Source: a virus. From it: DNA of 64,000 bases. The notes under the pieces were generated by a model. That model had not been told where the DNA came from and did no database searches. It saw nothing but the letters and a program-made list of their open reading frames with translations. The stretch spans positions 1 to 64,000 of the IMG/VR virus record IMGVR_UViG_3300012211_000003; one strand, written 5' to 3'. Shown here one piece after another: positions 18,937 to 32,157 of this stretch (within the stretch, counting starts at the first letter, position 1; the number at the start of each line of letters is the position of its first letter). Both the position numbers and the translations under genes were made by a program.

Positions 18937-21900
18937 ATGCTTTTAGATCCAGTCGAATTAGACCCGTCCGAAATACAGCAGGACAAGCCGGTCGCGCCAC
19001 CAAAGCCCGAACCGGTGGAACTCGATTCGTCTGAAATCTCTACTCCCGACCTAAAGGACCCGCAGGAACTCGTCAAAAGATACGCCACCGAGCGCGGGAT
19101 TGACCCTGGGATTGCTCATCGATGGGCGACACAGGAGTCTGGTTACAATCAAAAAGCGATCAGTCCGAAAGGCGCGATCGGTGTCACTCAGTTGATGCCG
19201 AATACCGCAGCCCGTCTCGGTGTCGACCCCCACGACCTACAGCAGAACATTGAAGGGGGCACTCGTGAATTACGGAGATTGATCGATAAATATGGCGGCG
19301 ATCAGCGAATGGCCCTAGCTGCGTATAATGCGGGAGAGGGCGCGGTTGATTCCCACGGCGGCATTCCTCCCTATAAAGAAACCCAGGACTATGTGAATAC
19401 CATCGCTGGCAAGCAAGCGAAACCCGTTGAGGTTGATCCATCAGAAATAACAACGAAACCTATCGAACTCGACCCAAGCGAATTCACGGTTGAGCAACCA
19501 GAAGCAGCGCAACCAGCACAGGCGAGTCCATTCACAGCCGCCAATCGTCCGGGATTTGGTCATCCAGCTCAGTCACAGAGTCCATTTAACGCGGCGAATC
19601 GCCCAGGGTTTGCACCACCAAAGCCCGGCAGCGTTCCCGATGTGTTGTCACGGTTGCAGAGTCCGACGACCGGGCAGGAGGTAGGTTCAGTCAGCGGTCG
19701 GCCAACCGCAACGCCACACCAGGGACAAGGTATTCAGACGCCAGTCGGCCAGCGGAATAATCTTTACGAAGTTCCAGAACAGACACAGGCTCGAGTAAAG
19801 ATCGAACGAAACTCGGCACTGATGGAGGCAGCAACGGCTGCAACACCAGAAGCACGACGAGCGGCAATTGTTAAGCTCGCGGGTTATGGTCCTCTGAGCG
19901 ACGAAGAGAAGCGAACGCTCGGCGTCGGTCAAAATGATGCTCTTGGTTACGCCAGCAGTTTCGGAACAGGTGTTGCCGATACTGGATTATCGGCACTCGG
20001 TGCGGTCGGTCGCGTACTATCCACACCGGGAATACCGGGAACTCAGGGCGTCGGACAATCAATATCGGATTTCGCCGATAATCGCCGTAAGGAAGTTGAT
20101 GCCCTTGCGAACGTCTTCAACAAAGAGAATGTCAGCGGTCACGCTCTGAACACGGCTGGCAGGGTAGCGCCACAGTTATTAGCCGCAGTTGCCGCGGCCC
20201 CTGAGACACTGGCGGCAAAGATCGCGTATTGGGACGCGACGACCGCAGCCCTCGGCTTCGGTAGGGGTGAAACACCAGAGCAATACATCAAAGAAGGACT
20301 GGCTGCAACGCCGATGGTTGTCGGTTCTGAGGCATTCGCGGCTGTCGGTGAATCACTAGCGCCGGCAGTGGCAAAAGCTTTGGGCAACGGACCAACCACG
20401 CTGTTCGTATCTAAACAGGTTCCGATGATGGTCTCGATCTTCGGTAATGCTCCAACCCAGGGAATGCTGGTCAGGGTTGCTGGCGGCGACGAGCAAGCAG
20501 CGACTTCGGCCGTTGCCCTCTCGGTGTTCATGGGCTTGCTTCATGCCAAACTTCCGACTGACGTAGAATATGGTAAAGCGGCCCTTGAAAATCTCCGCGC
20601 GGCAGACGAGTCTGCGGGAAACACCAGATTTGCGGATTTAACGGAGAAGCTGGCCGATGTCGCCAACCGCACAGGTGAAGACCCACAAGCGGCAGAGCAC
20701 TTTGCAGCCCGGACGGTTGACGAGGCTCGACGCGGTGGCGAAACGGCGATCAGGAACCTTGAGAACATTTTCAAGGATGTCGGGGAATTACCACCAGCGG
20801 AAGGACCAGCCGCACAGGACGCACAGCCTGGCGCTCCAGTCGTTCCCAGTTCTCCGGCCGGAACTCCGGTTACCCAACCAGAACAATTAACTGGCAACCG
20901 CGCGTTCTGGGAGATGACGAAGCAGGAAGTTCAAGACCGCGCAGGTGGAGCTGTCGCGCCTGAAATGCTCGCCCAGATGCACGAAGACTCGGTTAGAGAT
21001 GCGCTCGCTCGTGGTGAAATCGTGCCTCCGCAGGTACTCGCCGAATTCCCTGAACTTCAATCGAGATCGGCGTCGTCAGTAGCTCCTGAATCGGCAGCGG
21101 TGCCTACTCAAGAGTCTACGACGGCGCCAGAAGATCAGCGACTGCCCGGCCATAAGCTACTCAACGACAATGGAATCATTGATGCCCAGATTCGACAGAT
21201 GACACCTGAAGAGGTCAGTCAGAAGCTTAACAAGATTCGCTTAGGTGTCGAACCAGCGACAACCCCAGCCGAGAGTCAGGCAATCGACCGGCAGGTTCAA
21301 CGGCTATCGAAACAGGGTGTCAAAGACTTCAGCCCGACCGAAACGTATGGTGAAGAACCGGTGAACGACCGTCGCGCGGAATCCAGAGGACCAGACAGGC
21401 GCGGAGAGGATCGGCGGCAGGCGGAAGGCCTTGGACCAGGTGGCGAAGAACGACGTATAGGGCCACGTCGAACCCAGATCAAGAATATGACGCTGGACGA
21501 AGCCCGGCAAGCGGCGGGAATCAGCAAAAAGACCGGGTTGCCAAACTATGAAGTATTTCACGACGACCAGCAGGATATGCAGCAGTCGCACCCGCACGTA
21601 GGATACGCCGATATTGACGGATTCAAAGCTTATAACCATATACTCGGTCACAAGGGAGTCGATGAATCTGTTCTGCCAGCAGTCGGTGCGGTCTTCAGGG
21701 AGTCGGCGGCGCAAGAGCCAGAAGGCAGCGTAAAGGTTTACCACAGGTCCGGCGATGAATTCTTATTCAGGTCTGATGACCCAGCGCGTGTCTCGCGGAT
21801 TGTCGAGCGTGCGAACAAAGTTCTCGATGATATGACGTTCACCTATCAGACCCCAGGTGGCAAGATACTCACAACGAAAGGACTGGGATTTAGTCATGGC

Positions 21901-24900
21901 ACAGGATCAGACGAAGACGAGGCTGAAGCTGCGGCCAATCTCGACAAACAGGTCAGGAAAGCAGCAGGACTCAGGACTGGCGAACGAGACATCCCCGACG
22001 TGGGCACAGGGAGTGCCACCGGGGAGCAAGTTGCTCAAGGTAACGTTACCAAACGGAAAGACGTATCCAGCGAAGTAAAGGAGGAAGGCAATGCCGTTAA
22101 ACCCACAGAAAACAAAGGCCGCGTTTCAACAGAACATGAGGGAACTGAACAAAGGCCCGCACCACCGGGCAATGAGCCGCAAGTACGGAGAGCAAAAAGC
22201 GAGCAAAATAGACGCGGCGATCAGTTACAAGGAGCAGGAGAAAAAACCGAAGTAAAGCAACCTTGGCAGATGACGCGCAAGGAATTCCGAAACAAATACT
22301 GGGTGCATTTCGATCTTCGTCCAGATCCAGAATCTCGCGTTGACGAGATGATGAAAGGCATCAAGAGCGGATGGGGAAGCCCTGACCTGAACTTTGAAAA
22401 GCGTGCGGATTTGCCAGAACGGGCACCAGCACGCGGATGGTCGACCTCTACCGGACAGGACAAGGCTGGAAATCGCGCCTATGTCCTTCCACAAAGCGCA
22501 CTGAAGTCAAATGGTCGAGGATTCAAACCCGGAACTGTGCCGGTCGCTACGACTGTTTTACAACGAGAAGGCCAGTCAGTCCATCATCGATTGATCGAGG
22601 AAGCCTTGGAGCGCGGCGACAATGTTCCAGAAAAGGTTTTGGCTGAGTATCCAGACCTTCAGGGGAAAGCGAGGAAACCAGATGAGGAAAGTCAGAATCA
22701 GGGGATCAGCCCCGAAGTTGCCGAGAATTTCAAGCCTCTCGAAGCCGAAGTCACAAGACCCGACTCCGTTCTTAGACAGCACATTGACGCAACCATCAGC
22801 AATCCCAGCGTCGATAATAGAACAGCGCTCCACGACGCCGCAGTCGAAGAACTTGGGCACGTCGAAGACCCAGCCGTTCGAGAACAGCACGCGGCCGCAA
22901 TCGTCGATGAAGTCGTCGATAGATCAGAGTCTGGCGATACTGAAGGGCGCACAGAAGAGACTGAGCCGGAATCCATAACCTATCGCTATCAAGCTGCTGA
23001 TACTGGAAAACGTGGACATCATACGGTCGAAGGTAAGCCCGTCACGATTCCCGGATTTGAGCAATTCGACCTCTATATATACCGGACTGAGGGCGGAAAG
23101 GGACTACCCGATTCATGGTCGGTAAACGAAGGAACAACCGGTTCTCGCATCGCCAAGGCTTTCAGCGAAGAACAGGCGATTGAACACGCGACGGCGACCC
23201 TTAAGAAAGCGGGCGTCGATGGCTTTAAAAAGGTTATTGCCGATTGGATAGAGAAACACGGAACGATCAAGGGCTACGCTCCACCAGCAAAGAGACAGCC
23301 GTTTAAGACACCTGAGAAACCAGTGCTTCCACCCGACCAGAGATACTATATCGCCTCAAAAACTGGAACCTTCGAGGAGGTGGAAGGCAAACGATTCACG
23401 ATACCAGAGCATCCCGACCTGGACGTATTCACTCATCGTAGCAGGTCTGGACAAAGCTGGATGGCGAGCGAAGGCACGACAGGCCACGCAATCACCGACT
23501 ACACCCCGACTATCAAAGACGCAAAACAGGAAGCCGCTTTCACCGTCGAGCGAATGGGCATCGACAAGTTCCGCTCCTCAATCGCGGATACGCTTGAAAA
23601 GAACGGCGGAACTCCGCGTTATAAGTCGGTTGACACAAGACCCAAAGAGCCTACAATAGAACCAACGGAGGCTACTAATGAGCCAGCCACAACGCAAACT
23701 CGGCCCCCTCGGACGAATGGCAAAACGCCACTGGGAGCAAAACCTACCGAACAAGTACCAGGAACTGCAACACCAGGGCGGACTAAAAGAGGCACTACTG
23801 AGCGCCCAGGAGAGAGCGAAGGACCAGTTCGCCGACCGAGTGAGCAAGGGTCAGAACCCGGAACAGGCGAGGGAGCAGGCGTTGGCCGACCACATACTAC
23901 TGAAACCGGAGAGCGACCAGCCGGAACCGTGGGAGAAGGAACGGGCGAACGACCAGATGCAACAGGCAGTCGACCAGTCGCTGAAGTCATCGAAGAAACG
24001 GCGCCACTCGGCGGGTACCGGCCCGCAGCCCCAAAACACGCCGGAGATTTCTACCTAGACGATCCTGCGCTGATTACCAGTGGCGGAGCAAAAACAAAGC
24101 TGCAGCGTAACATCGCGGCAATTCGACTTGTCCGGAACATCACGGCAGAGGGACGACCAGCGACCGCCGAAGAACAGAAGATACTCGCGCAGTTCACGGG
24201 GTTTGGTCAATTCCCAGCGGTTTTCAATCAATACGCACCTGAAGGAAAAGAGTATTCCAAAGAGCGCGACATCATCTTAGGCAAAGGTGATGAGCCTGGA
24301 TTGCTGGAAGGCCCCGAACTCGCGGCCGCCAAGCGCTCGACCTTGAATGCTCACTACACATCCCCAGAAGTCGTCAAACGAATGTGGGACATTGCCCGGC
24401 GTCTCGGGTTCGACGGCGGTCGAGTACTCGAACCATCAATGGGCATCGGTAACTTCTTTGCGCTTATGCCCCGTGATCTGCATGGCAAATCGAGATTGAC
24501 AGGTATCGAACTCGATCAGATGACCGGACAGATGGCGCGATTGCTCTACCCGGAATCGAATATCCAGATCAAAGGTTTTGAGAAGCACAACATACCGGAC
24601 AACTTCTATGACTTTGCAATCGGCAACGTTCCTTTTGGTGACTACAAGATAAACGACAAGGATTACAATCGCTTCCAAGCAAACATTCACGATTACTTTT
24701 TCCTTCGGTCGCTGGACAAGGTTCGACCCGGGGGATTGTTGATGTTCATCACGTCAACCGGAACGCTGGATAAACTCGATTCAAAGATTCGTGATGCACT
24801 TGTCGATAAAGCCGATCTGGTCGGGGCAATGCGCTTTCCAGAAAACACGTTTCAGGAATCAGCGGGAACGGCGGTCGTTACCGACCTGATCATTCTCAGG

Positions 24901-27900
24901 AAGCGGTTACCAGACGAGAAAGCCAAAACCGACTGGACGGGCTTGGGCGAGCTTCCTGATGCCGATGGTGGCGAGCTGATCAAGATCAACAAGTATTATG
25001 AGAATCATCCCGAACAGATTCTGGGAACGCTTGATCGTCGATCGCGGCTCTACGGCAAAGGTAGTTCGCACGTAACCCGGACCAAGGATTTTGTTGAGCG
25101 CTTCGAGAAAGCTGTCGAGAACCTACCAAAAGACGTGATGTCCGAGCGGCCGAAGAATCCGGTCTTTGAGCCAAATAGACTGGTCGATGACGGAGATACC
25201 AAGCAGGGCGGGTTCGCAATCAAAGACGGTAAGCTATTCGTCAAAGAAGGCGACGACCTGATAGAGCAATCTGCCAGTCCAGCGGAGATTGCGCGTATTC
25301 AGGGAATGCTCGATGTCCGGGATGCTCTTCGAAAAGTAATCAACGCTCAGCTTGAGCATCAGGGCGAGACGGCAACAGCCGCAGCTCGCAAGGAACTCAA
25401 CAAGGCCTACGATCAGTTTGTTAAAAAACACGGCTATCTCCACGAGCCCGCAAACGCGCGCGCGATGATGGACGATCCGGACAAGTATGTATTACTTGCG
25501 CTGGAAGACTACAACCCTGAGACAAAGAAGGCGACGAAGACCGCGGCCTTCACCCAGAACACAATCAGGGTCTATGAACGACCGGAAAAGGCAGATAACG
25601 TCGGGAGTGCCGTGGGTATCAGTCTCAGCGAATACGGCAAGGTCGACATTCCCAGAATCGCGGGACTGGTCGGAAAGAGTGAAGCGCAGGTTAGTAAGAC
25701 TCTCGTAAAGGACGGGCTTGCCTTTCAGAATCCAAACGGCACTTGGGAAACGGCAGACATTTACCTCTCCGGCAATGTCAGGCAGAAACTCGCACAGGCA
25801 CAGGAGGCAGCAGCGGTTGACAAGCAATTCCAGCCGAATGTCGATGCGCTGTCAAAGATTCAGCCTGAAGATCTGGATTACACTGACATCGATGCAAAAC
25901 TTGGCTCGCCGTGGATTGCCCCTTCAGATGTCGCGCAGTTCATGGCGGACAAACTCGGTGGTCGTCCTGAGAACTACAAGGTTAGCTACCTTGTCGGTCA
26001 GGGTCAGTGGATGGCCGACTATGCAAGGAGGAATAGTCCTCTTGAGTTTTCCGAGAAGGCGCGAAAAGTTTACGGTACTCCGCGCGCAAACTTCATTGAT
26101 ATTGTTCAGTCGGCTTTGTCGGATAAGCCAATACTGATCTACGATGGATCAAAAGAAACCCGCGTGCTAAATGCTCAGGAAAGCGCAGATGCAAACGCCA
26201 AGGTCGCGGAAATAAAGACCCTGTTCAAAGAATGGCTCTGGGAAGACGAGGAGCGCCGGACAAGACTCCATCGCTACTACAACGACAATTTCAACAACAT
26301 TCGGCTGGTCAAATACGATGCGCGGCATTATAAGGACGAAGACGGTCAGTATCGATTACCGGGAATGAACCCAGCAATCAGCCTCCGACCGCATCAAGCA
26401 AACGCAATCTGGCAGATTATCAGTCAGGGTCGGGCGTTGCTCGCCCACGAAGTCGGGACTGGCAAGACCTTCGCGATGGTTGGCGCGGCAATGGAAATGC
26501 GTCGGATGGGATTGGCAAACAAACCGGCCATTGCGGTACCAAAGTCGATCATCGAAGGATTTCTGGCAGATGCCCAGCGATTGTATCCAAACGCGAAGAT
26601 CATCACACCTGGAGCGAAGTTCACCAAGGACACGAGGAAGCAGACGGTCGCGCGGATTGCGACCGGTGACTACGATCTGGTTGTCCTAACCCATGACAAT
26701 CTGGATATGTTACCCATGCACCCGGACGTTGTTCGAGATTTCGTTAACCGGGAACTGGACGAACTGGAAGCCGCGATCAGAGCGTCACAGGCGGAGGATG
26801 CGAGCAAGGGTAACAAGGTCGTAAAACAATTAGAGAAAGCGAAAGCCAAACTGGAAGCCCGGCTAAAGGAAGCTGTTGAAGGATCGAAAACCGACGACGC
26901 TGTGTACTTTGAACATACCGGCGTCGACTTCCTGTTCGTCGATGAAGCCCACAAATACAAGAGTCTTCCGGTCTACAGCGCACGCCAGAGGGTCAAGGGT
27001 ATCCCGACCAGCCGGAGCGATAGAGCAACCAATATGCTGATGCGTACTCGCTGGTTGATCGAGCAAAACAAGAATCGCGGAGTGGTCTTTGCCACAGGTA
27101 CACCGGTCGCCAACACGATGGTCGAACTCTACAACATGCAGAAATACCTGCAATACCAGGATTTGGTTGATCGTGGCATTCAGGCGTTCGATGCCTGGGC
27201 AAATACCTTTGGCGATACGACAACTAAGATGGAAGTCGGGGTAACCGGAGATTACTCGGCGGTCACCCGGTTTGCGAAGTACTCGAACCTTCCTGAACTA
27301 CTGGCGCTCAGTCGTCAGATTATGGACGTCCAAAGAGTAGATGATCTTGGCGGTACGGTCGTCCGACCAAAGCGAAATGACCAGGTGGTAAGCATTCCAA
27401 TCTCCGACAGCCAGACCGCTTTCATGAACGACATCAAACGTCGGGCTGTCGCGATCAAGAATCGGAAGGTCGAACCGAAGGTCGACAATATGCTGAAGCT
27501 CAGCTCGGATGCCCGCAAGGTCTCGATGGACATCAGGCTGGTCCGTGGCGGAAGGGAAGACGCGAAGAACAAGGCAAAAGCCGTAGCCGGTGAAGTCCTG
27601 AGACTTTGGAAGAAACAACCGACCAGAACGCAAATGATCTTCTCTGACATCGGAGTTAACAAGACCGAGTGGGGATTCTCGATGTATGACGAGATTACGA
27701 AGCTACTCGTCAAAGGAGGAATGCCGAAAGATAAGATCATCGACTTTGCGACCCTGACAGAGAAGCAGAAAACGGGCGCCATTGAACGATTGGCAACCGG
27801 GAAGGCGTTAGTAGCCATCGGCGGAACTGACAAGCTGGGAACTGGCGTCAATGCTCAGAAGTATTTGATTGCGCTTCACCATATCGACGTTCCGTGGCTT

Positions 27901-30900
27901 CCGGCAGCGGTCGAACAGCGCGACGGTCGAGGCTGGCGACAAGGGAACGATCTAGCGCAGGAAGGGAAACCGCTTCAGATATACCGATATGTCACGACCA
28001 ACAGTTTCGATACCTTCATGTGGCAACTGGTCGACGCCAAATCGAAGTTCATCCGTCAGGCGATGCAAGGCGACTTGAAACAGCGGACGTTCAAAGACGA
28101 GGACTCAGAAGAGCTTTCGCCGGCAAAGGTCATGGCTATCGCTTCGGGCAATCCCGACCTTTTGAGAAAGGTTCAGGTTGACGAAGATGTCCAGCAATTG
28201 GAGGCCTCGGAACGGCGCCACACCAAAGCACAGAACGCGCTGAAAGATTCAGAGAAGAAGTTGAAGCGCGAGGCCCAGCCGTACCTGGACCGAATTGCCA
28301 AGTACGAGGAAGAATACGAGACTCTGAAGCGTAAAGATGATGAAAAGTTCTCAATAGATATAAACGGCAAGAGATATGACAAGCGAGAGGAAGCTGGGAA
28401 AGCTCTTGAGACTTATCTGACGACGCTGCCGGAAGATGCTCATACCAAGATTGGCGAGTTTCGAGGCTGGGACATTATCTATCAGAAAGGTAACGCTTAT
28501 CTTGGCAAAGGCAAAGAGCTCGGACGTAATAACTACAACTTCAACCTGAACATTGAGGATGGCGAATCCACTATCAGTTCGATTGAGCATATTCCACAGA
28601 GCATAAAGAACCGGATCAAATCGACTGAGGCCAGCCGCCAACAGGGGGTCGCGGACCTCGAAGCCGTCCAGAAGGAAATCGGGAAACCGTTTAAGCAGGC
28701 CGACGAGCTGTCTGCAAAGAAAGCCGAACAGATAGAACTGGAAAGACGGTTATCAGAGAAAAGGGAAACACCGACCGATAACATCGAAGCCGTGCCGTTC
28801 GATCCATTCGACGGTGAAGAGCCGCTTGAATTCAATACACCGGAATCGACGGAGCCTGACTCGAAGAAGTATTTCCTCTATAACCAGGGAGCGGGAGAGT
28901 TCCAGGAAGTCAAAGGAGCTAAACCGCTGGAGATTCCCGGCTTTGAGGATATGGATCTGTATATCCACAAGACCGATGATGGATGGTCAATTGGCGAAGG
29001 CCGAACCGGGATGCTCGTCGGGGGTGGCAAGACCAAACAGGCGGCGATTGCCGACGCCACGAAGAAGCTGACGAACGCCACGCCTGAGAAGATCAAGCAG
29101 TTGATGGCGGCGGCGGTCGAGAAACAGGGCGAATCTCCGCGAGTGAAATCACGCAGGGGCGAGCCCTCCGGCAAATCCCCGATCGTAGCCGCTCCGTCTC
29201 TCGGCGGTGGAAGCGGCAAAGGCACGCCGATCCTGACAAAGATCAAAGACTGGAACAAGGCACGAATAGCAGCGAAACCAGTGGCGATCAAAGAACCTGG
29301 TGGTTTCCGTGCGACCTTCTCAGATATGTTCACTCGTAACGGCGCGAAACTCCGAGCTGAGAACGTAGAAGCTTTCGAGGCGTTCATAAAGGCCGCATCA
29401 TCAAATGCTCAGTCGTATAACCTGATGCGAAAGAATGTTCCGGCAATTGAGGAAGCGGCAAAGATGAAGTTCTCAAACTTCGCGTTGCACTTAATTGAGT
29501 CTCGATTGAGGGGAATCCGACAACGCTACCAGGATATTGCCGATGAAGTATCGATAATCAGCGACGATGATCTGGTCGAAGCTTTCAACCAGGATCACGG
29601 ATTTGCCGACATTCTCGACAACATTGCTGGGAAACGTGATTTGGGCGACAACTTGCGCGCCGAGGCTGAGACTCTGCTGTCTGACGGTGATCTCGACGGC
29701 TTGCGGACATTCATCTACGACAAACTGCTGGCTGCTGCCGACGCCGTGGGTACGATCCCATTCAGCCCGAACTATTCATTCGAGAAGGCAATTGAAAACG
29801 AGGGGTTCAAGAAAGCTCTGGAAATCTACAAGGAGCATTTCGAGAAACCGTTGGCTGAAAATCACGTGCAGAATGAGGGAGTGTTTAGTGACGCGCTGGG
29901 ACCGCTCGATACCTATTATCCGCTGATTGCCAAGAACGAGGACGGCGAACTTGTCGGTAAAGGTGGGGCGATTCCCGGACAGCGGGCGCCACTGGCAAAA
30001 CCGCGCAACATCGCCAATCGATTTGCCACGGGACTGGCTGAGCAATACAGCGCCGAGGCTGCGGACCTGCAAGACCGAATTAGACAGGCGTTCAAGGGCA
30101 ACAACATGGCTGCGTTCTATCAGATCCTCGAAGACGAAGGAATCACAGTCCCGTATAAGTCCGGTCCAACCCTGCCCGGTTACATCAAAAAGGACGCTGG
30201 TCCGTACACTCGCATCCTGAAAGATGGAAAGACGATCAGCGTCAAAGCTCGTCAGGTTCAAGTCCCTGAATGGCTCTGGCGCGAAATCTCCCCAATGATC
30301 GAACAGAAGATACACGGGAAGTCACTGCCCGGCCGGTTATTCAGGAAACTGACCGGACTGGGATTAGTCGGCTTGCTCGAACCGGCGATACACAGCCAGA
30401 ACATCGTGAAGACGTTGACGACCAGTACGCCGTTTATATTCAAGAACCCGCTTCAGACGACAATCGGCAAGACTCCGATCCTGAAGGCGCTCGACATCGT
30501 GGCGAACATTGTCACCAATCTGCCGGTGTTGACGAAACCTATCGCCGCAGGCGTGAAGATCCTCTCGACATCGACAAAGAGCCAGAAGGCAATGCGTAAT
30601 AAGCGACGACTGGCCGACGCCGGAGCCTTGCCGGAAAAGACTGGGAGTATCACCTTCAGTAAAAAGATTGCCGAACAGACTGGGGCGAAACGCTCGCTGT
30701 CAATGGGACCGATTTTGTATGGGCCATCGGGGATTGATACGCGCGCACGACTGGCAATGCTCGACATCCTCGACGCGATGAATCCGGACGCTACAAACGC
30801 CGAGATATTCGACTTTGTAAACAACCTGGGGATTTATAACCGGGCACTTGAACCGCAGTTAGGTCGGTTCGTCAAAGACCTGGGGATTGGACCGTTCTAT

Positions 30901-32157
30901 ACCGCAGGCTCGACCAGAATCAGGAACGGCGTCCGTGCGCTGACTCTCCAGCACGATATTCCGGCCGCTGGTGGTTCAGGCGGTGGTAAGGGCGCTGGCG
31001 GCGGTCCAAAAGCTGGGCCGGGCGCAGAGTACACGGCAGGCGACAGAGCGGCCTACGTCATCGCCCAAGCTCTTTCTGGCGGAATTATCGGCCTGCTGGC
31101 AATGTGGGTTTTGCTGCACTATGCATATCGAAAGAAATTCCCCTGGCAGGAAGAAGACGCGAAGTTACTGCAGATCAAACTCAATGACGACGACCGGAAA
31201 TCTGACGCCGCAAACGCGCTCTATGGTAAAGGTGACAACGGTGCATACATCGGGCTCGACTTCAGTTCACATATTCCCAGTGCTACCCGCGCACTCGGGA
31301 TGGCTGGTTATTTCAATACCACTCAGGCTGGTGGTACAGTCGGGCAGTCGCTCGAAAAGGGAATGGCGGATTCCATTAGTGGACTGACTCAGCCGTTGAT
31401 CAGCGCTCCCGGTATACATATGGGCTCAGTCGCGATCTTCGGAAAAGAGCCACGATTGACCGGGATGCGAGACGTTGAAGGAAACTTCGGGCCGCAGTTT
31501 GCAGCGGCAGCGCCAAAACACGAACCCGGTTGGAAACAATTTAGTTCTAATCTGGCAAACGGTATATTGGGCGTCAACGGTTTCCTCAAGAATGTGGCTG
31601 GTGTTGGCGGTGTCGGATACGAGGGTCAACGCGACGACGACAAGACCAAGACCGCGAAACTGATGTCCCTGGTGGTTAATCTGGCCGCGCCGGGGCTCAT
31701 CAAAGGAACGTCTGACGTCACTGACGATTCGATCAGACTGGCATTGCAAAGACAGAACACCGACGAGAACGCGACAAAGCCACTGCGCGATCAGTTTATC
31801 AAACAGATGCGATCAGGTGGCGACCTGGACAAACTGCACGATGACATCGCAGCCGCCTATCAAGCGGGTAAACTGCGAGAATCGGACATCAACCAAATCT
31901 ACGACAAAGGTTCTCAGGGTCACACGGAAGAGCGCTGGAAGACCTTAAACGGTCGAAATGCCATCGACGTGTTTGTCAATCATATGACACCGGAGCAACA
32001 GGAAAAGACGGTTAAGCTCCAGCAAAAGAACGGTGACTCGGTACTCGGTCGTCGGCGCGCACAGTATGCGGAATCGCTACCAGAGAGCCAAAGGGATACC
32101 GATCCGTTGCTGATGAAACTTGATAAGTTGTGGGATGATCTTTTATCGAAGAAATAA
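18937..32157 (+). CDS. Giant polyvalent ejection protein (SLT, GGDEF, methylase-helicase)
   Basis: 4406 residues with no cysteine. Domains in order: lytic transglycosylase 45-160 (Glu67, GVTQLMP 82-88, AAYNAG 128-133); hydrophobic Gly/Ala region about 330-530; paired motifs A-L-x-R-G...V-L-A-E-x-P-x-L-Q at 689-708 and 1223-1242; GGDEF domain about 860-1010 (TGLPN 866-870, DIDGFK 892-897, SGDEF 938-942); a repeat domain at 1349-1443, 1469-1564 and 3310-3405; N6-adenine methylase about 1790-1985 (EPSMGIG 1832-1838, NVPFG 1897-1901); SF2 helicase about 2480-3060 (GTGKT 2507-2511, DEAH 2669-2672, TGTP 2720-2723, QRDGRGWRQGN); C-terminal helical region with a membrane segment near 4040-4065. The set matches phage polyvalent and DarB-like antirestriction proteins: probably packaged and ejected, opening peptidoglycan and protecting or processing entering DNA. 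No SD is visible. Confidence 0.85.
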   Translation: MLLDPVELDPSEIQQDKPVAPPKPEPVELDSSEISTPDLKDPQELVKRYATERGIDPGIAHRWATQESGYNQKAISPKGAIGVTQLMPNTAARLGVDPHDLQQNIEGGTRELRRLIDKYGGDQRMALAAYNAGEGAVDSHGGIPPYKETQDYVNTIAGKQAKPVEVDPSEITTKPIELDPSEFTVEQPEAAQPAQASPFTAANRPGFGHPAQSQSPFNAANRPGFAPPKPGSVPDVLSRLQSPTTGQEVGSVSGRPTATPHQGQGIQTPVGQRNNLYEVPEQTQARVKIERNSALMEAATAATPEARRAAIVKLAGYGPLSDEEKRTLGVGQNDALGYASSFGTGVADTGLSALGAVGRVLSTPGIPGTQGVGQSISDFADNRRKEVDALANVFNKENVSGHALNTAGRVAPQLLAAVAAAPETLAAKIAYWDATTAALGFGRGETPEQYIKEGLAATPMVVGSEAFAAVGESLAPAVAKALGNGPTTLFVSKQVPMMVSIFGNAPTQGMLVRVAGGDEQAATSAVALSVFMGLLHAKLPTDVEYGKAALENLRAADESAGNTRFADLTEKLADVANRTGEDPQAAEHFAARTVDEARRGGETAIRNLENIFKDVGELPPAEGPAAQDAQPGAPVVPSSPAGTPVTQPEQLTGNRAFWEMTKQEVQDRAGGAVAPEMLAQMHEDSVRDALARGEIVPPQVLAEFPELQSRSASSVAPESAAVPTQESTTAPEDQRLPGHKLLNDNGIIDAQIRQMTPEEVSQKLNKIRLGVEPATTPAESQAIDRQVQRLSKQGVKDFSPTETYGEEPVNDRRAESRGPDRRGEDRRQAEGLGPGGEERRIGPRRTQIKNMTLDEARQAAGISKKTGLPNYEVFHDDQQDMQQSHPHVGYADIDGFKAYNHILGHKGVDESVLPAVGAVFRESAAQEPEGSVKVYHRSGDEFLFRSDDPARVSRIVERANKVLDDMTFTYQTPGGKILTTKGLGFSHGTGSDEDEAEAAANLDKQVRKAAGLRTGERDIPDVGTGSATGEQVAQGNVTKRKDVSSEVKEEGNAVKPTENKGRVSTEHEGTEQRPAPPGNEPQVRRAKSEQNRRGDQLQGAGEKTEVKQPWQMTRKEFRNKYWVHFDLRPDPESRVDEMMKGIKSGWGSPDLNFEKRADLPERAPARGWSTSTGQDKAGNRAYVLPQSALKSNGRGFKPGTVPVATTVLQREGQSVHHRLIEEALERGDNVPEKVLAEYPDLQGKARKPDEESQNQGISPEVAENFKPLEAEVTRPDSVLRQHIDATISNPSVDNRTALHDAAVEELGHVEDPAVREQHAAAIVDEVVDRSESGDTEGRTEETEPESITYRYQAADTGKRGHHTVEGKPVTIPGFEQFDLYIYRTEGGKGLPDSWSVNEGTTGSRIAKAFSEEQAIEHATATLKKAGVDGFKKVIADWIEKHGTIKGYAPPAKRQPFKTPEKPVLPPDQRYYIASKTGTFEEVEGKRFTIPEHPDLDVFTHRSRSGQSWMASEGTTGHAITDYTPTIKDAKQEAAFTVERMGIDKFRSSIADTLEKNGGTPRYKSVDTRPKEPTIEPTEATNEPATTQTRPPRTNGKTPLGAKPTEQVPGTATPGRTKRGTTERPGESEGPVRRPSEQGSEPGTGEGAGVGRPHTTETGERPAGTVGEGTGERPDATGSRPVAEVIEETAPLGGYRPAAPKHAGDFYLDDPALITSGGAKTKLQRNIAAIRLVRNITAEGRPATAEEQKILAQFTGFGQFPAVFNQYAPEGKEYSKERDIILGKGDEPGLLEGPELAAAKRSTLNAHYTSPEVVKRMWDIARRLGFDGGRVLEPSMGIGNFFALMPRDLHGKSRLTGIELDQMTGQMARLLYPESNIQIKGFEKHNIPDNFYDFAIGNVPFGDYKINDKDYNRFQANIHDYFFLRSLDKVRPGGLLMFITSTGTLDKLDSKIRDALVDKADLVGAMRFPENTFQESAGTAVVTDLIILRKRLPDEKAKTDWTGLGELPDADGGELIKINKYYENHPEQILGTLDRRSRLYGKGSSHVTRTKDFVERFEKAVENLPKDVMSERPKNPVFEPNRLVDDGDTKQGGFAIKDGKLFVKEGDDLIEQSASPAEIARIQGMLDVRDALRKVINAQLEHQGETATAAARKELNKAYDQFVKKHGYLHEPANARAMMDDPDKYVLLALEDYNPETKKATKTAAFTQNTIRVYERPEKADNVGSAVGISLSEYGKVDIPRIAGLVGKSEAQVSKTLVKDGLAFQNPNGTWETADIYLSGNVRQKLAQAQEAAAVDKQFQPNVDALSKIQPEDLDYTDIDAKLGSPWIAPSDVAQFMADKLGGRPENYKVSYLVGQGQWMADYARRNSPLEFSEKARKVYGTPRANFIDIVQSALSDKPILIYDGSKETRVLNAQESADANAKVAEIKTLFKEWLWEDEERRTRLHRYYNDNFNNIRLVKYDARHYKDEDGQYRLPGMNPAISLRPHQANAIWQIISQGRALLAHEVGTGKTFAMVGAAMEMRRMGLANKPAIAVPKSIIEGFLADAQRLYPNAKIITPGAKFTKDTRKQTVARIATGDYDLVVLTHDNLDMLPMHPDVVRDFVNRELDELEAAIRASQAEDASKGNKVVKQLEKAKAKLEARLKEAVEGSKTDDAVYFEHTGVDFLFVDEAHKYKSLPVYSARQRVKGIPTSRSDRATNMLMRTRWLIEQNKNRGVVFATGTPVANTMVELYNMQKYLQYQDLVDRGIQAFDAWANTFGDTTTKMEVGVTGDYSAVTRFAKYSNLPELLALSRQIMDVQRVDDLGGTVVRPKRNDQVVSIPISDSQTAFMNDIKRRAVAIKNRKVEPKVDNMLKLSSDARKVSMDIRLVRGGREDAKNKAKAVAGEVLRLWKKQPTRTQMIFSDIGVNKTEWGFSMYDEITKLLVKGGMPKDKIIDFATLTEKQKTGAIERLATGKALVAIGGTDKLGTGVNAQKYLIALHHIDVPWLPAAVEQRDGRGWRQGNDLAQEGKPLQIYRYVTTNSFDTFMWQLVDAKSKFIRQAMQGDLKQRTFKDEDSEELSPAKVMAIASGNPDLLRKVQVDEDVQQLEASERRHTKAQNALKDSEKKLKREAQPYLDRIAKYEEEYETLKRKDDEKFSIDINGKRYDKREEAGKALETYLTTLPEDAHTKIGEFRGWDIIYQKGNAYLGKGKELGRNNYNFNLNIEDGESTISSIEHIPQSIKNRIKSTEASRQQGVADLEAVQKEIGKPFKQADELSAKKAEQIELERRLSEKRETPTDNIEAVPFDPFDGEEPLEFNTPESTEPDSKKYFLYNQGAGEFQEVKGAKPLEIPGFEDMDLYIHKTDDGWSIGEGRTGMLVGGGKTKQAAIADATKKLTNATPEKIKQLMAAAVEKQGESPRVKSRRGEPSGKSPIVAAPSLGGGSGKGTPILTKIKDWNKARIAAKPVAIKEPGGFRATFSDMFTRNGAKLRAENVEAFEAFIKAASSNAQSYNLMRKNVPAIEEAAKMKFSNFALHLIESRLRGIRQRYQDIADEVSIISDDDLVEAFNQDHGFADILDNIAGKRDLGDNLRAEAETLLSDGDLDGLRTFIYDKLLAAADAVGTIPFSPNYSFEKAIENEGFKKALEIYKEHFEKPLAENHVQNEGVFSDALGPLDTYYPLIAKNEDGELVGKGGAIPGQRAPLAKPRNIANRFATGLAEQYSAEAADLQDRIRQAFKGNNMAAFYQILEDEGITVPYKSGPTLPGYIKKDAGPYTRILKDGKTISVKARQVQVPEWLWREISPMIEQKIHGKSLPGRLFRKLTGLGLVGLLEPAIHSQNIVKTLTTSTPFIFKNPLQTTIGKTPILKALDIVANIVTNLPVLTKPIAAGVKILSTSTKSQKAMRNKRRLADAGALPEKTGSITFSKKIAEQTGAKRSLSMGPILYGPSGIDTRARLAMLDILDAMNPDATNAEIFDFVNNLGIYNRALEPQLGRFVKDLGIGPFYTAGSTRIRNGVRALTLQHDIPAAGGSGGGKGAGGGPKAGPGAEYTAGDRAAYVIAQALSGGIIGLLAMWVLLHYAYRKKFPWQEEDAKLLQIKLNDDDRKSDAANALYGKGDNGAYIGLDFSSHIPSATRALGMAGYFNTTQAGGTVGQSLEKGMADSISGLTQPLISAPGIHMGSVAIFGKEPRLTGMRDVEGNFGPQFAAAAPKHEPGWKQFSSNLANGILGVNGFLKNVAGVGGVGYEGQRDDDKTKTAKLMSLVVNLAAPGLIKGTSDVTDDSIRLALQRQNTDENATKPLRDQFIKQMRSGGDLDKLHDDIAAAYQAGKLRESDINQIYDKGSQGHTEERWKTLNGRNAIDVFVNHMTPEQQEKTVKLQQKNGDSVLGRRRAQYAESLPESQRDTDPLLMKLDKLWDDLLSKK
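21896..22078 (+). CDS. Possible nested small gene 1
   Basis: 60 codons in the +1 frame relative to the giant gene, beginning inside the end of the GGDEF coding region. The C-terminus (PPGSKLLKVTLPNGKTY) looks like ordered beta sequence, unlike a random shadow. AAAGGA is 13 bases before the ATG, rather far. Its stop is followed after 12 bases by nested gene 2 in the same frame, which is the main support. It could still be a shadow. Confidence 0.3.
   Translation: MAQDQTKTRLKLRPISTNRSGKQQDSGLANETSPTWAQGVPPGSKLLKVTLPNGKTYPAK
22091..22255 (+). CDS. Nested small basic protein gene 2
   Basis: 54 codons inside the giant gene, +1 frame. A strong ribosome site (AAAGGAGGAAGGCA) runs directly into the ATG. 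The product is Lys/Gln-rich and helical (AAFQQNMRELNKG, SKIDAAISYKEQEKK) and recalls small basic phage proteins of similar size. In the main frame this stretch is a low-complexity Glu/Arg/Pro linker, as expected if selection acts on the other frame. Confidence 0.55.
   Translation: MPLNPQKTKAAFQQNMRELNKGPHHRAMSRKYGEQKASKIDAAISYKEQEKKPK
22981..23628 (+). repeat. Tandem copies 1 and 2 of a repeated domain in the giant gene
   Basis: Codons 1349-1443 and 1469-1564. Both copies follow V-x-G-K-x-x-T-I-P, D-L/V-x-x-x-x-x-R, S-W, E-G-T-T-G, a helical Ala-rich stretch, and I-A-D-x-x-E-K-x-G-T. A third copy lies at 28864-29151. The pattern fits a large-polyvalent-protein-associated domain; the exact family is not identified. 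Confidence 0.75.
23678..24058 (+). CDS. Nested overlapping gene 3 in giant-protein linker
   Basis: 126 codons in the +1 frame within the giant gene. CGGAGG (23666-23671) lies seven bases before the ATG, a textbook ribosome site. The N-terminal 80 residues look like a real helical domain: LGPLGRMAKRHWEQNLP, then a Y-x-x-L...G-x-L-x-x-A-L pattern and QAREQALADHILLKPE. This recalls small phage proteins with an L-G-x-x-A-x-x-H-W start, though I cannot name the family. The main frame here is a Pro/Thr/Gly/Glu linker (about 1581-1707) between the second repeat domain and the methylase. Confidence 0.65.
   Translation: MSQPQRKLGPLGRMAKRHWEQNLPNKYQELQHQGGLKEALLSAQERAKDQFADRVSKGQNPEQAREQALADHILLKPESDQPEPWEKERANDQMQQAVDQSLKSSKKRRHSAGTGPQPQNTPEIST
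28864..29151 (+). repeat. Copy 3 of the repeated domain in the giant gene
   Basis: Codons 3310-3405, after the helicase. It shares the signature (LEIPGFEDMDLYIHK, GWSIGEGRTG, VEKQGESPRVKS) with the two tandem copies before the methylase, so the methylase-helicase block is bracketed by this domain. Confidence 0.75.

What the first reader, a model, noticed from the sequence alone, without database searches (positions are those of the whole stretch)
21529..21975. Apparently intact GGDEF domain in an ejected phage protein
Residues 866-990 of the giant protein carry TGLPN, DIDGFKAYN, GHKGVDE, HRSGDEF and a final K-x-x-x-x-G-L-R-T-G-E-R helix. Metal ligands (Asp892, Glu941), guanine ligands (Asn900, Asp909) and Lys897 line up with those of diguanylate cyclases; SGDEF variants can be active. 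No RxxD inhibitory site is visible. A phage that injects a cyclic-dinucleotide synthase, or a GGDEF-derived nucleotide binder, could alter host signalling or anti-phage (CBASS-like) responses at entry.
Basis: partly seen in the sequence, partly recalled or inferred. Interest (0 to 1): 0.85.

Follow-up and report, generated by a model that had tools for sequence, protein, structure and literature searches.

The report
GGDEF domain in ejected phage protein
A giant protein that this phage probably carries in its particle and injects into the host contains a real, divergent GGDEF domain with its catalytic residues kept; the same domain is found in otherwise unrelated giant phage proteins, so it may make a cyclic-nucleotide signal at the moment of infection, an idea proposed in 2017 and still untested.

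Summary
Residues 866-1007 of the 4406-aa ORF (18937-32157, +) are a genuine, divergent GGDEF domain: Pfam PF00990 at E 3.7e-7, a family profile matching solved diguanylate cyclases at E 1.9e-16, and an AlphaFold core with pLDDT above 90 that retrieves PleD, WspR and DgcR. One detail is wrong: by alignment with PleD the metal ligand is Asp940, and Glu941 is the predicted general base. In seven relatives from other giant phage proteins (30-56% identical) every metal, guanine and catalytic position is invariant (D892, D894, K897, N900, D909, G939, D940, E941), as are two arginines in the last helix.

The domain is the only stretch the window protein shares with six of those seven giants. One is a full-length N4-type virion RNA polymerase (Dyella contig), a class known to be injected; another is fused to a virion structural protein; two carry a 2H phosphoesterase just before the GGDEF.

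Best reading: a mobile, virion-delivered module retained for catalysis, most likely making c-di-GMP at entry. Delivery is inferred and activity unproven; some diguanylate cyclase features are lost. GGDEF in polyvalent proteins, and this role, were proposed by Iyer et al. 2017: a new member of a known kind.

The parts
18937..32157 (+). 4406-aa polyvalent (DarB-like) protein
   Evidence: single open frame; PHROG 10089 'DarB-like antirestriction', 1510 bits over residues 1475-3548; downstream of tail-fibre/virion-protein genes
19069..19371 (+). SLT lytic transglycosylase domain, residues 45-145
   Evidence: Pfam PF01464 E 1.9e-19; also matches phage internal virion and tail lysin PHROGs
21475..21990 (+). 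GGDEF module shared with other giant phage proteins (residues 847-1018)
   Evidence: the only region aligning with the L002, L003, L004, L009, L010 and L011 giants by BLAST
21532..21957 (+). Pfam GGDEF domain, residues 866-1007
   Evidence: searches (E 3.7e-7 excised; over cut-off), AlphaFold model m71bba7c4f771, Foldseek to diguanylate cyclases
21610..21636 (+). DIDGFKAYN: metal ligand D892, phosphate loop K897, guanine ligand N900
   Evidence: D892, D894, K897, N900 invariant in 8 polyvalent relatives; aligned to PleD D327/K332/N335
21661..21663 (+). D909, guanine ligand (PleD D344 equivalent)
   Evidence: invariant in 8 of 8
21739..21762 (+). YHRSGDEF signature (935-942): D940 metal ligand, E941 general base
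   Evidence: Y935, G939, D940, E941 invariant in 8 of 8; HRS in 7 of 8, L009 reads YRVGGDEI
21955..21975 (+). R1007-K1008...G1011-R1013: candidate triphosphate contacts in place of PleD K442/R446
   Evidence: R1007, G1011, R1013 invariant in 8 of 8; K1008 variable
23716..28791 (+). N6-methylase plus SNF2 helicase dyad, residues 1594-3285
   Evidence: 33-35% identical over about 1800 aa to giants of Klebsiella phage SopranoGao, Erwinia phage Stean and Pseudomonas phage Itty13, whose whole genomes have no GGDEF match; Pfam N6_Mtase, SNF2

Best explanation
The domain is a mobile GGDEF module carried inside a polyvalent, virion-packaged protein that is injected with the phage DNA (inferred). In the cytoplasm two copies pair (inferred; diguanylate cyclases act as homodimers, so several copies per virion would be needed). 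Each binds Mg-GTP through D892/D940, N900/D909 and the C-terminal arginines, and Glu941 activates the 3'-hydroxyl of the partner's GTP, giving a cyclic dinucleotide, most likely c-di-GMP because Asp909 is kept where cGAMP-forming Hypr enzymes have Ser. With no RxxD site it would not be product-inhibited in the usual way. The early pulse would perturb host cyclic-nucleotide signalling, alongside the other anti-host domains on the same chain. Shown here: homology, fold, conservation of the active site, and spread as a module among unrelated giant phage proteins. Inferred: packaging, injection, catalysis, product and benefit.
For: GGDEF homology and fold. In 8 polyvalent proteins D892, D894, K897, N900, D909, G939, D940, E941, R1007 and R1013 are invariant while the domains are 30-56% identical to the window's. 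In the 10-row alignment all 7 catalytic/substrate positions fall among only 10 invariant columns (chance about 4e-10 if columns were equal and independent; a crude figure, since these motifs are conserved in all GGDEFs). The module is the only region shared by the window protein and L002, L003, L004, L009, L010, L011, so it was transferred and kept. Virion link: L010 is a full-length N4-type virion RNA polymerase (PHROG 2206, 1775 bits), a class packaged in the virion (PMC5512222); L009 is fused to a virion structural protein (150 bits); the window gene follows virion genes and has an SLT domain. Nucleotide-conflict context: L003 and L004 have a 2H phosphoesterase with both HxT motifs just upstream of the GGDEF; its modest-confidence model matches 2H enzymes, phage Acb1 among the weaker ones. 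SGDEF does not preclude activity (PMC8079147).
Against: Below the NCBIfam GGDEF curated cut-off (20.1 against 37.4 bits). Cellular GGDEFs in the Dyella and Pseudofulvimonas genomes mostly score above 100 bits with PF00990, against 30 here. Departures from the canonical enzyme: Ser at position 1 of GGDEF; His936 in place of the usual Arg two residues before the motif; Tyr871 after TGLPN where PleD has Arg; PleD K442 position variable (K/T/E/L). No sensor or dimerisation domain was recognised next to it. No proteomic evidence that this protein is in virions.
Confidence: 0.55

Rival explanations
1. The domain no longer cyclises but still binds GTP or a cyclic dinucleotide, acting as a sensor, or as a sponge that soaks up a host signal on entry.
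For: Departures from canonical residues and lower profile scores. Non-catalytic GGDEF domains with regulatory roles exist (CC3396, cited in PMC8079147). Single copy without an obvious dimerisation partner.
Against: The predicted general base E941 and metal ligand D940 are invariant in all relatives; pure binders usually lose the motif (general knowledge). There is no I-site for c-di-GMP binding.
Confidence: 0.28
2. It serves in virion assembly or packaging of the giant protein, with the palm fold reused as a scaffold.
For: Smaller GGDEF-like proteins of other phages lie among head or tail genes: L008 downstream of a portal gene, L006 between tail sheath and baseplate hub genes, and one in Myxococcus phage Mx1 between the prohead protease and major capsid genes.
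Against: The genomes of SopranoGao, Stean, PBC5 and Itty13, with related giants, have no GGDEF match. Active-site conservation is not explained.
Confidence: 0.1
3. The domain is an active cyclase of altered specificity (cGAMP or mixed product) that feeds or confuses a CBASS-like host defence.
For: The Arg of TGLxNR is replaced by Tyr/Leu/Gln/Lys in the family. A Tyr at a cross-dimer Arg position shifts Hypr enzymes towards cGAMP (PMC6456294); that it is the same position was not verified. 2H phosphoesterase neighbours in L003/L004.
Against: D909 is Asp in all relatives, not the Ser typical of Hypr enzymes.
Confidence: 0.07

Closest known systems
GGDEF-containing polyvalent proteins of Iyer et al. 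2017 (e.g. Acetonema longum prophage protein WP_004096050.1)
   Same: Giant phage-type protein combining GGDEF with SWI2/SNF2 ATPase and adenine methylase; same proposed role (PMC5512222)
   Different: That protein also has zincin and ART domains, not recognised here by Pfam. Whether its GGDEF belongs to this SGDEF subfamily was not tested. Fusion to N4 vRNAP and adjacency to a 2H phosphoesterase were not mentioned in the passages read.
Canonical diguanylate cyclases (PleD, WspR, DgcZ)
   Same: Fold; metal, guanine and catalytic positions
   Different: SGDEF; HR instead of Rx before the motif; no RxxD site; no NR arginine; embedded in a giant phage protein without a recognised sensor domain
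YuA gp44 and Vojvodinavirus stand-alone phage GGDEF proteins
   Same: Phage-encoded GGDEF; YuA gp44 is annotated with a putative role in host conversion; suggested link to extra biofilm in Bordetella lysogens (PMC8471281)
   Different: About 150-aa proteins outside the structural gene block, presumably made after entry, not part of a virion giant
DarB-like / PLxRFG giants (phage SopranoGao, Stean, PBC5, Itty13)
   Same: Methylase-SNF2 dyad; N-terminal similarity over the SLT region in SopranoGao and Stean; position next to virion genes
   Different: The four whole genomes checked have no GGDEF match

Membership tests
GGDEF domain (Pfam PF00990) | profile score above curated cut-off | tested here: met
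   30.5 vs 23.8 bits excised, 30.3 in the genome search; 23.7 when the full 4406 aa are scanned
GGDEF domain (NCBIfam TIGR00254) | score above 37.4 bits | tested here: not met
   20.1 bits
GGDEF domain | GGDEF palm fold | tested here: met
   AF2 core pLDDT above 90; Foldseek prob 1.00, E about 1e-7 to diguanylate cyclases, TM-score by target up to 0.70
Active diguanylate cyclase | metal and guanine ligands and general base present | tested here: met
   D892, D940, N900, D909, E941 present and invariant
Active diguanylate cyclase | phosphate contacts K442/R446 of PleD | tested here: inconclusive
   K1008 not conserved; R1007 and R1013 invariant and may replace them
Active diguanylate cyclase | makes c-di-GMP from GTP as a dimer | not testable with these tools
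   needs biochemistry
Product-inhibited diguanylate cyclase | RxxD I-site five residues before the motif | tested here: not met
   residues 929-932 are EGSV
Hypr (cGAMP-forming) GGDEF | Ser at the PleD D344 position | tested here: not met
   Asp909, invariant in relatives
Polyvalent protein (Iyer et al. 2017) | several unrelated enzymatic domains in one phage polypeptide, encoded with virion genes | tested here: met
   SLT, GGDEF, N6-methylase, SNF2; upstream tail and virion genes
Polyvalent protein (Iyer et al. 2017) | packaged in the virion and injected | not testable with these tools
   only inferred from architecture and from the vRNAP relative

The most novel reading that the evidence does not exclude
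Unrelated tailed phages share a mobile, virion-delivered cyclic-dinucleotide synthase module, plugged into N4-type RNA polymerases, methylase-helicase giants, Strawberry-notch helicase giants and structural proteins, that makes a second messenger in the host at the moment of DNA entry, before any phage gene is expressed.
Probability: 0.42. Interest if true: 0.82.

Novelty: new member of a known kind. Interest (0 to 1): 0.52.

Why it matters
If active, these phages would set the level of a host second messenger in the first moments of infection, before phage transcription. That would be a different mode from expressed phage cyclases such as YuA gp44 and from phage enzymes that only degrade immune signals. 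The 2017 proposal that polyvalent proteins carry working GGDEF enzymes has, as far as I found, not been tested. A roughly 170-aa, well-folded domain with an intact predicted active site and seven natural homologues makes it directly testable. The fusion inside an N4-type virion RNA polymerase is the strongest available hint that the module really enters the cell.

Tried and rejected
Chance motif resemblance: rejected by Pfam, PDB profile and fold matches. Degenerate pseudo-enzyme judged from the window alone: rejected as the default because the active-site residues are invariant in divergent relatives, though inactivity is not excluded.

GGDEF as a standard part of DarB-like giants: rejected, since four related phage genomes lack it and tblastn of the domain finds nothing in 50,697 phage records at E 0.01; that collection may omit very near relatives of the window.

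Led nowhere: viral-contig scans with the L010 and L011 domains and with the window methylase region found no relatives, and the L009 scan found only itself. A search of 198 genomes of the Dyella family found only the original copy, so the domain is rare in cells. PADLOC gave no hit. The 2H model has modest confidence (pLDDT 67); its best matches are LigT/CPDase/Usb1-type enzymes and Acb1 only ranks 38th, so I do not call it an Acb1. The best BFVD hit, A0A516M277 (27% identity), carries no name here and was not identified. The dN/dS approach was not run because relatives at about 50% protein identity are saturated at synonymous sites.
Full report
WHAT IS THERE. The window is part of a 69,893-base virus record. 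The ORF at 18937-32157 (+) encodes 4406 aa without interruption. It carries an N-terminal SLT transglycosylase domain, a GGDEF domain, an N6-adenine methylase and an SNF2-type helicase, and its methylase-helicase part matches the PHROG family named DarB-like antirestriction with 1510 bits. Genes upstream match tail-fibre and virion-structural families; genes downstream match an exonuclease, a DNA methyltransferase, a replication initiator and the large terminase. This is a polyvalent protein in the sense of Iyer et al. 2017.

CHECK OF THE MOTIFS. Every quoted motif is at the stated residue. The excised stretch passes the Pfam GGDEF cut-off (30.5 against 23.8 bits, E 3.7e-7); in the full-length scan it misses by 0.1 bit. 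It fails the stricter NCBIfam cut-off (20.1 against 37.4 bits). A single-sequence search of the PDB returns diguanylate cyclases at E 5e-4; a profile of ten family members returns 51 GGDEF chains, best E 1.9e-16. AlphaFold2 gives a confident core (blocks of pLDDT 91-98 over residues 861-1001) with low-confidence ends, which suggests a discrete domain on flexible linkers. Foldseek retrieves Dcsbis, DgcR, WspR and PleD with probability 1.00.

ACTIVE SITE. I aligned the family with PleD, whose sequence was verified against PDB entries. Published roles: PleD D327 and E370 bind metal, N335 and D344 bind guanine, K442 and R446 bind phosphates (PMC7288161); the fourth residue of GGDEF is the general base acting across the dimer (PMC6456294). 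The window has D892, D940, N900, D909 and E941 at these positions. K442 has no fixed counterpart (K1008 varies), but Arg1007 and Arg1013 are invariant and could take over (inference). Departures from the canonical enzyme are SGDEF, His936 in place of Arg, Tyr871 in place of the Arg after TGLxN, and no RxxD site. SGDEF proteins can be active, with the caveat that the MbaA cytoplasmic domain was inactive in vitro (PMC8079147).

RELATIVES. Pattern scans of viral contigs and genomes gave giant-protein relatives L002-L005 (49-56% identical), L009 (31%), L010 in a Dyella sp. contig (35%) and L011 in Pseudofulvimonas gallinarii (33%). Across these eight proteins D892, D894, K897, N900, G904, D909, Y935, G939, D940, E941, R1007, G1011 and R1013 are invariant. 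L009 has the more canonical YRVGGDEI, so the SGDEF form is a variant within the family.

A SHARED MODULE. All-against-all BLAST shows that residues 847-1051 at most are the only part the window protein shares with L002, L003, L004, L009, L010 and L011; L005 shares a little more and also some neighbouring genes. Conversely the window's methylase-helicase half is 33-35% identical over about 1800 aa to giants of phages SopranoGao, Stean and Itty13, whose genomes have no GGDEF match. The module therefore moves independently of its carrier. The carriers are: FtsK-gamma, ddrB-ParB and Strawberry-notch helicase domains (L002); an N4-type virion RNA polymerase matched over nearly its whole length with 1775 bits (L010); a RadC/DUF7178 giant (L011); a virion structural protein (L009, 150 bits); and giants with a 2H phosphoesterase directly before the GGDEF (L003, L004), with both HVT motifs intact. 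L003 also has a weak match to a minor head/DNA pilot family. N4 virion RNA polymerase is packaged and transcribes early genes (PMC5512222), so at least one carrier belongs to a class that enters the cell.

WIDER PHAGE GGDEFS. Smaller proteins with GGDEF-like domains, several with YHRSGDEF, occur among head or tail genes of other phages (L006, L008, Mx1) and match unnamed PHROGs 5594, 14602, 9661, 26035, 11823 and 8342. Stand-alone GGDEF proteins of YuA-like and Vojvodinavirus phages lie outside the structural block; YuA gp44 is annotated with a putative role in host conversion, and Bordetella lysogens of such phages showed more biofilm, cause not established (PMC8471281).

MECHANISM. Best supported is an injected cyclase (0.55). 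Homology, fold, active-site retention and modular spread are shown; packaging, injection, dimerisation, product and benefit are inferred. Diguanylate cyclase monomers are inactive because each binds one NTP (PMC6456294), so at least two copies must meet, which injected multi-copy proteins could do. Asp909 argues for c-di-GMP over cGAMP. A non-catalytic binder (0.28), a scaffold role (0.10) and an altered-specificity cyclase (0.07) remain.

NOVELTY. Iyer et al. 2017 reported GGDEF domains in polyvalent proteins, named an example with SNF2 and methylase domains, and suggested interference with host nucleotide responses (PMC5512222). The window is thus a new member of a known kind. What I did not find in the passages read is the presence of the same SGDEF module in an N4-type virion RNA polymerase and beside 2H phosphoesterases, and the demonstration that the active site stays fixed while everything around it changes.

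Noticed in passing
L010:6860-18121: Dyella sp. ASV21 contig encodes a full-length N4-type virion RNA polymerase (3753 aa, PHROG 2206, 1775 bits) with a GGDEF domain inside it.
   Followed up: partly
L003/L014:9281-9880 and L004:9386-9973: 2H phosphoesterase domain with two HVT motifs directly upstream of the GGDEF in two giant phage proteins; model matches LigT/CPDase/Usb1 folds and, more weakly, Acb1.
   Followed up: partly
L019:5884-6615 (Myxococcus phage Mx1), L008:8575-9675, L006:9992-10456: Smaller GGDEF-like proteins of unknown function sit among head or tail genes; they match PHROGs with no named function.
   Followed up: partly
L002:5726-19075: 4449-aa giant combining FtsK-gamma, ddrB-ParB, a weak RelA/SpoT match, GGDEF and a Strawberry-notch helicase.
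   Followed up: no
BFVD A0A516M277_1: Unnamed viral giant-protein fragment (1143 aa) is the best viral structural match to the domain, 27% identity, E 1.6e-13; organism not identified.
   Followed up: no
L013:5897-6514: A GGDEF-like protein with YHRSGDEF on a Saccharibacteria metagenome contig, matching phage PHROG 5594 at E 2.8e-23.
   Followed up: no
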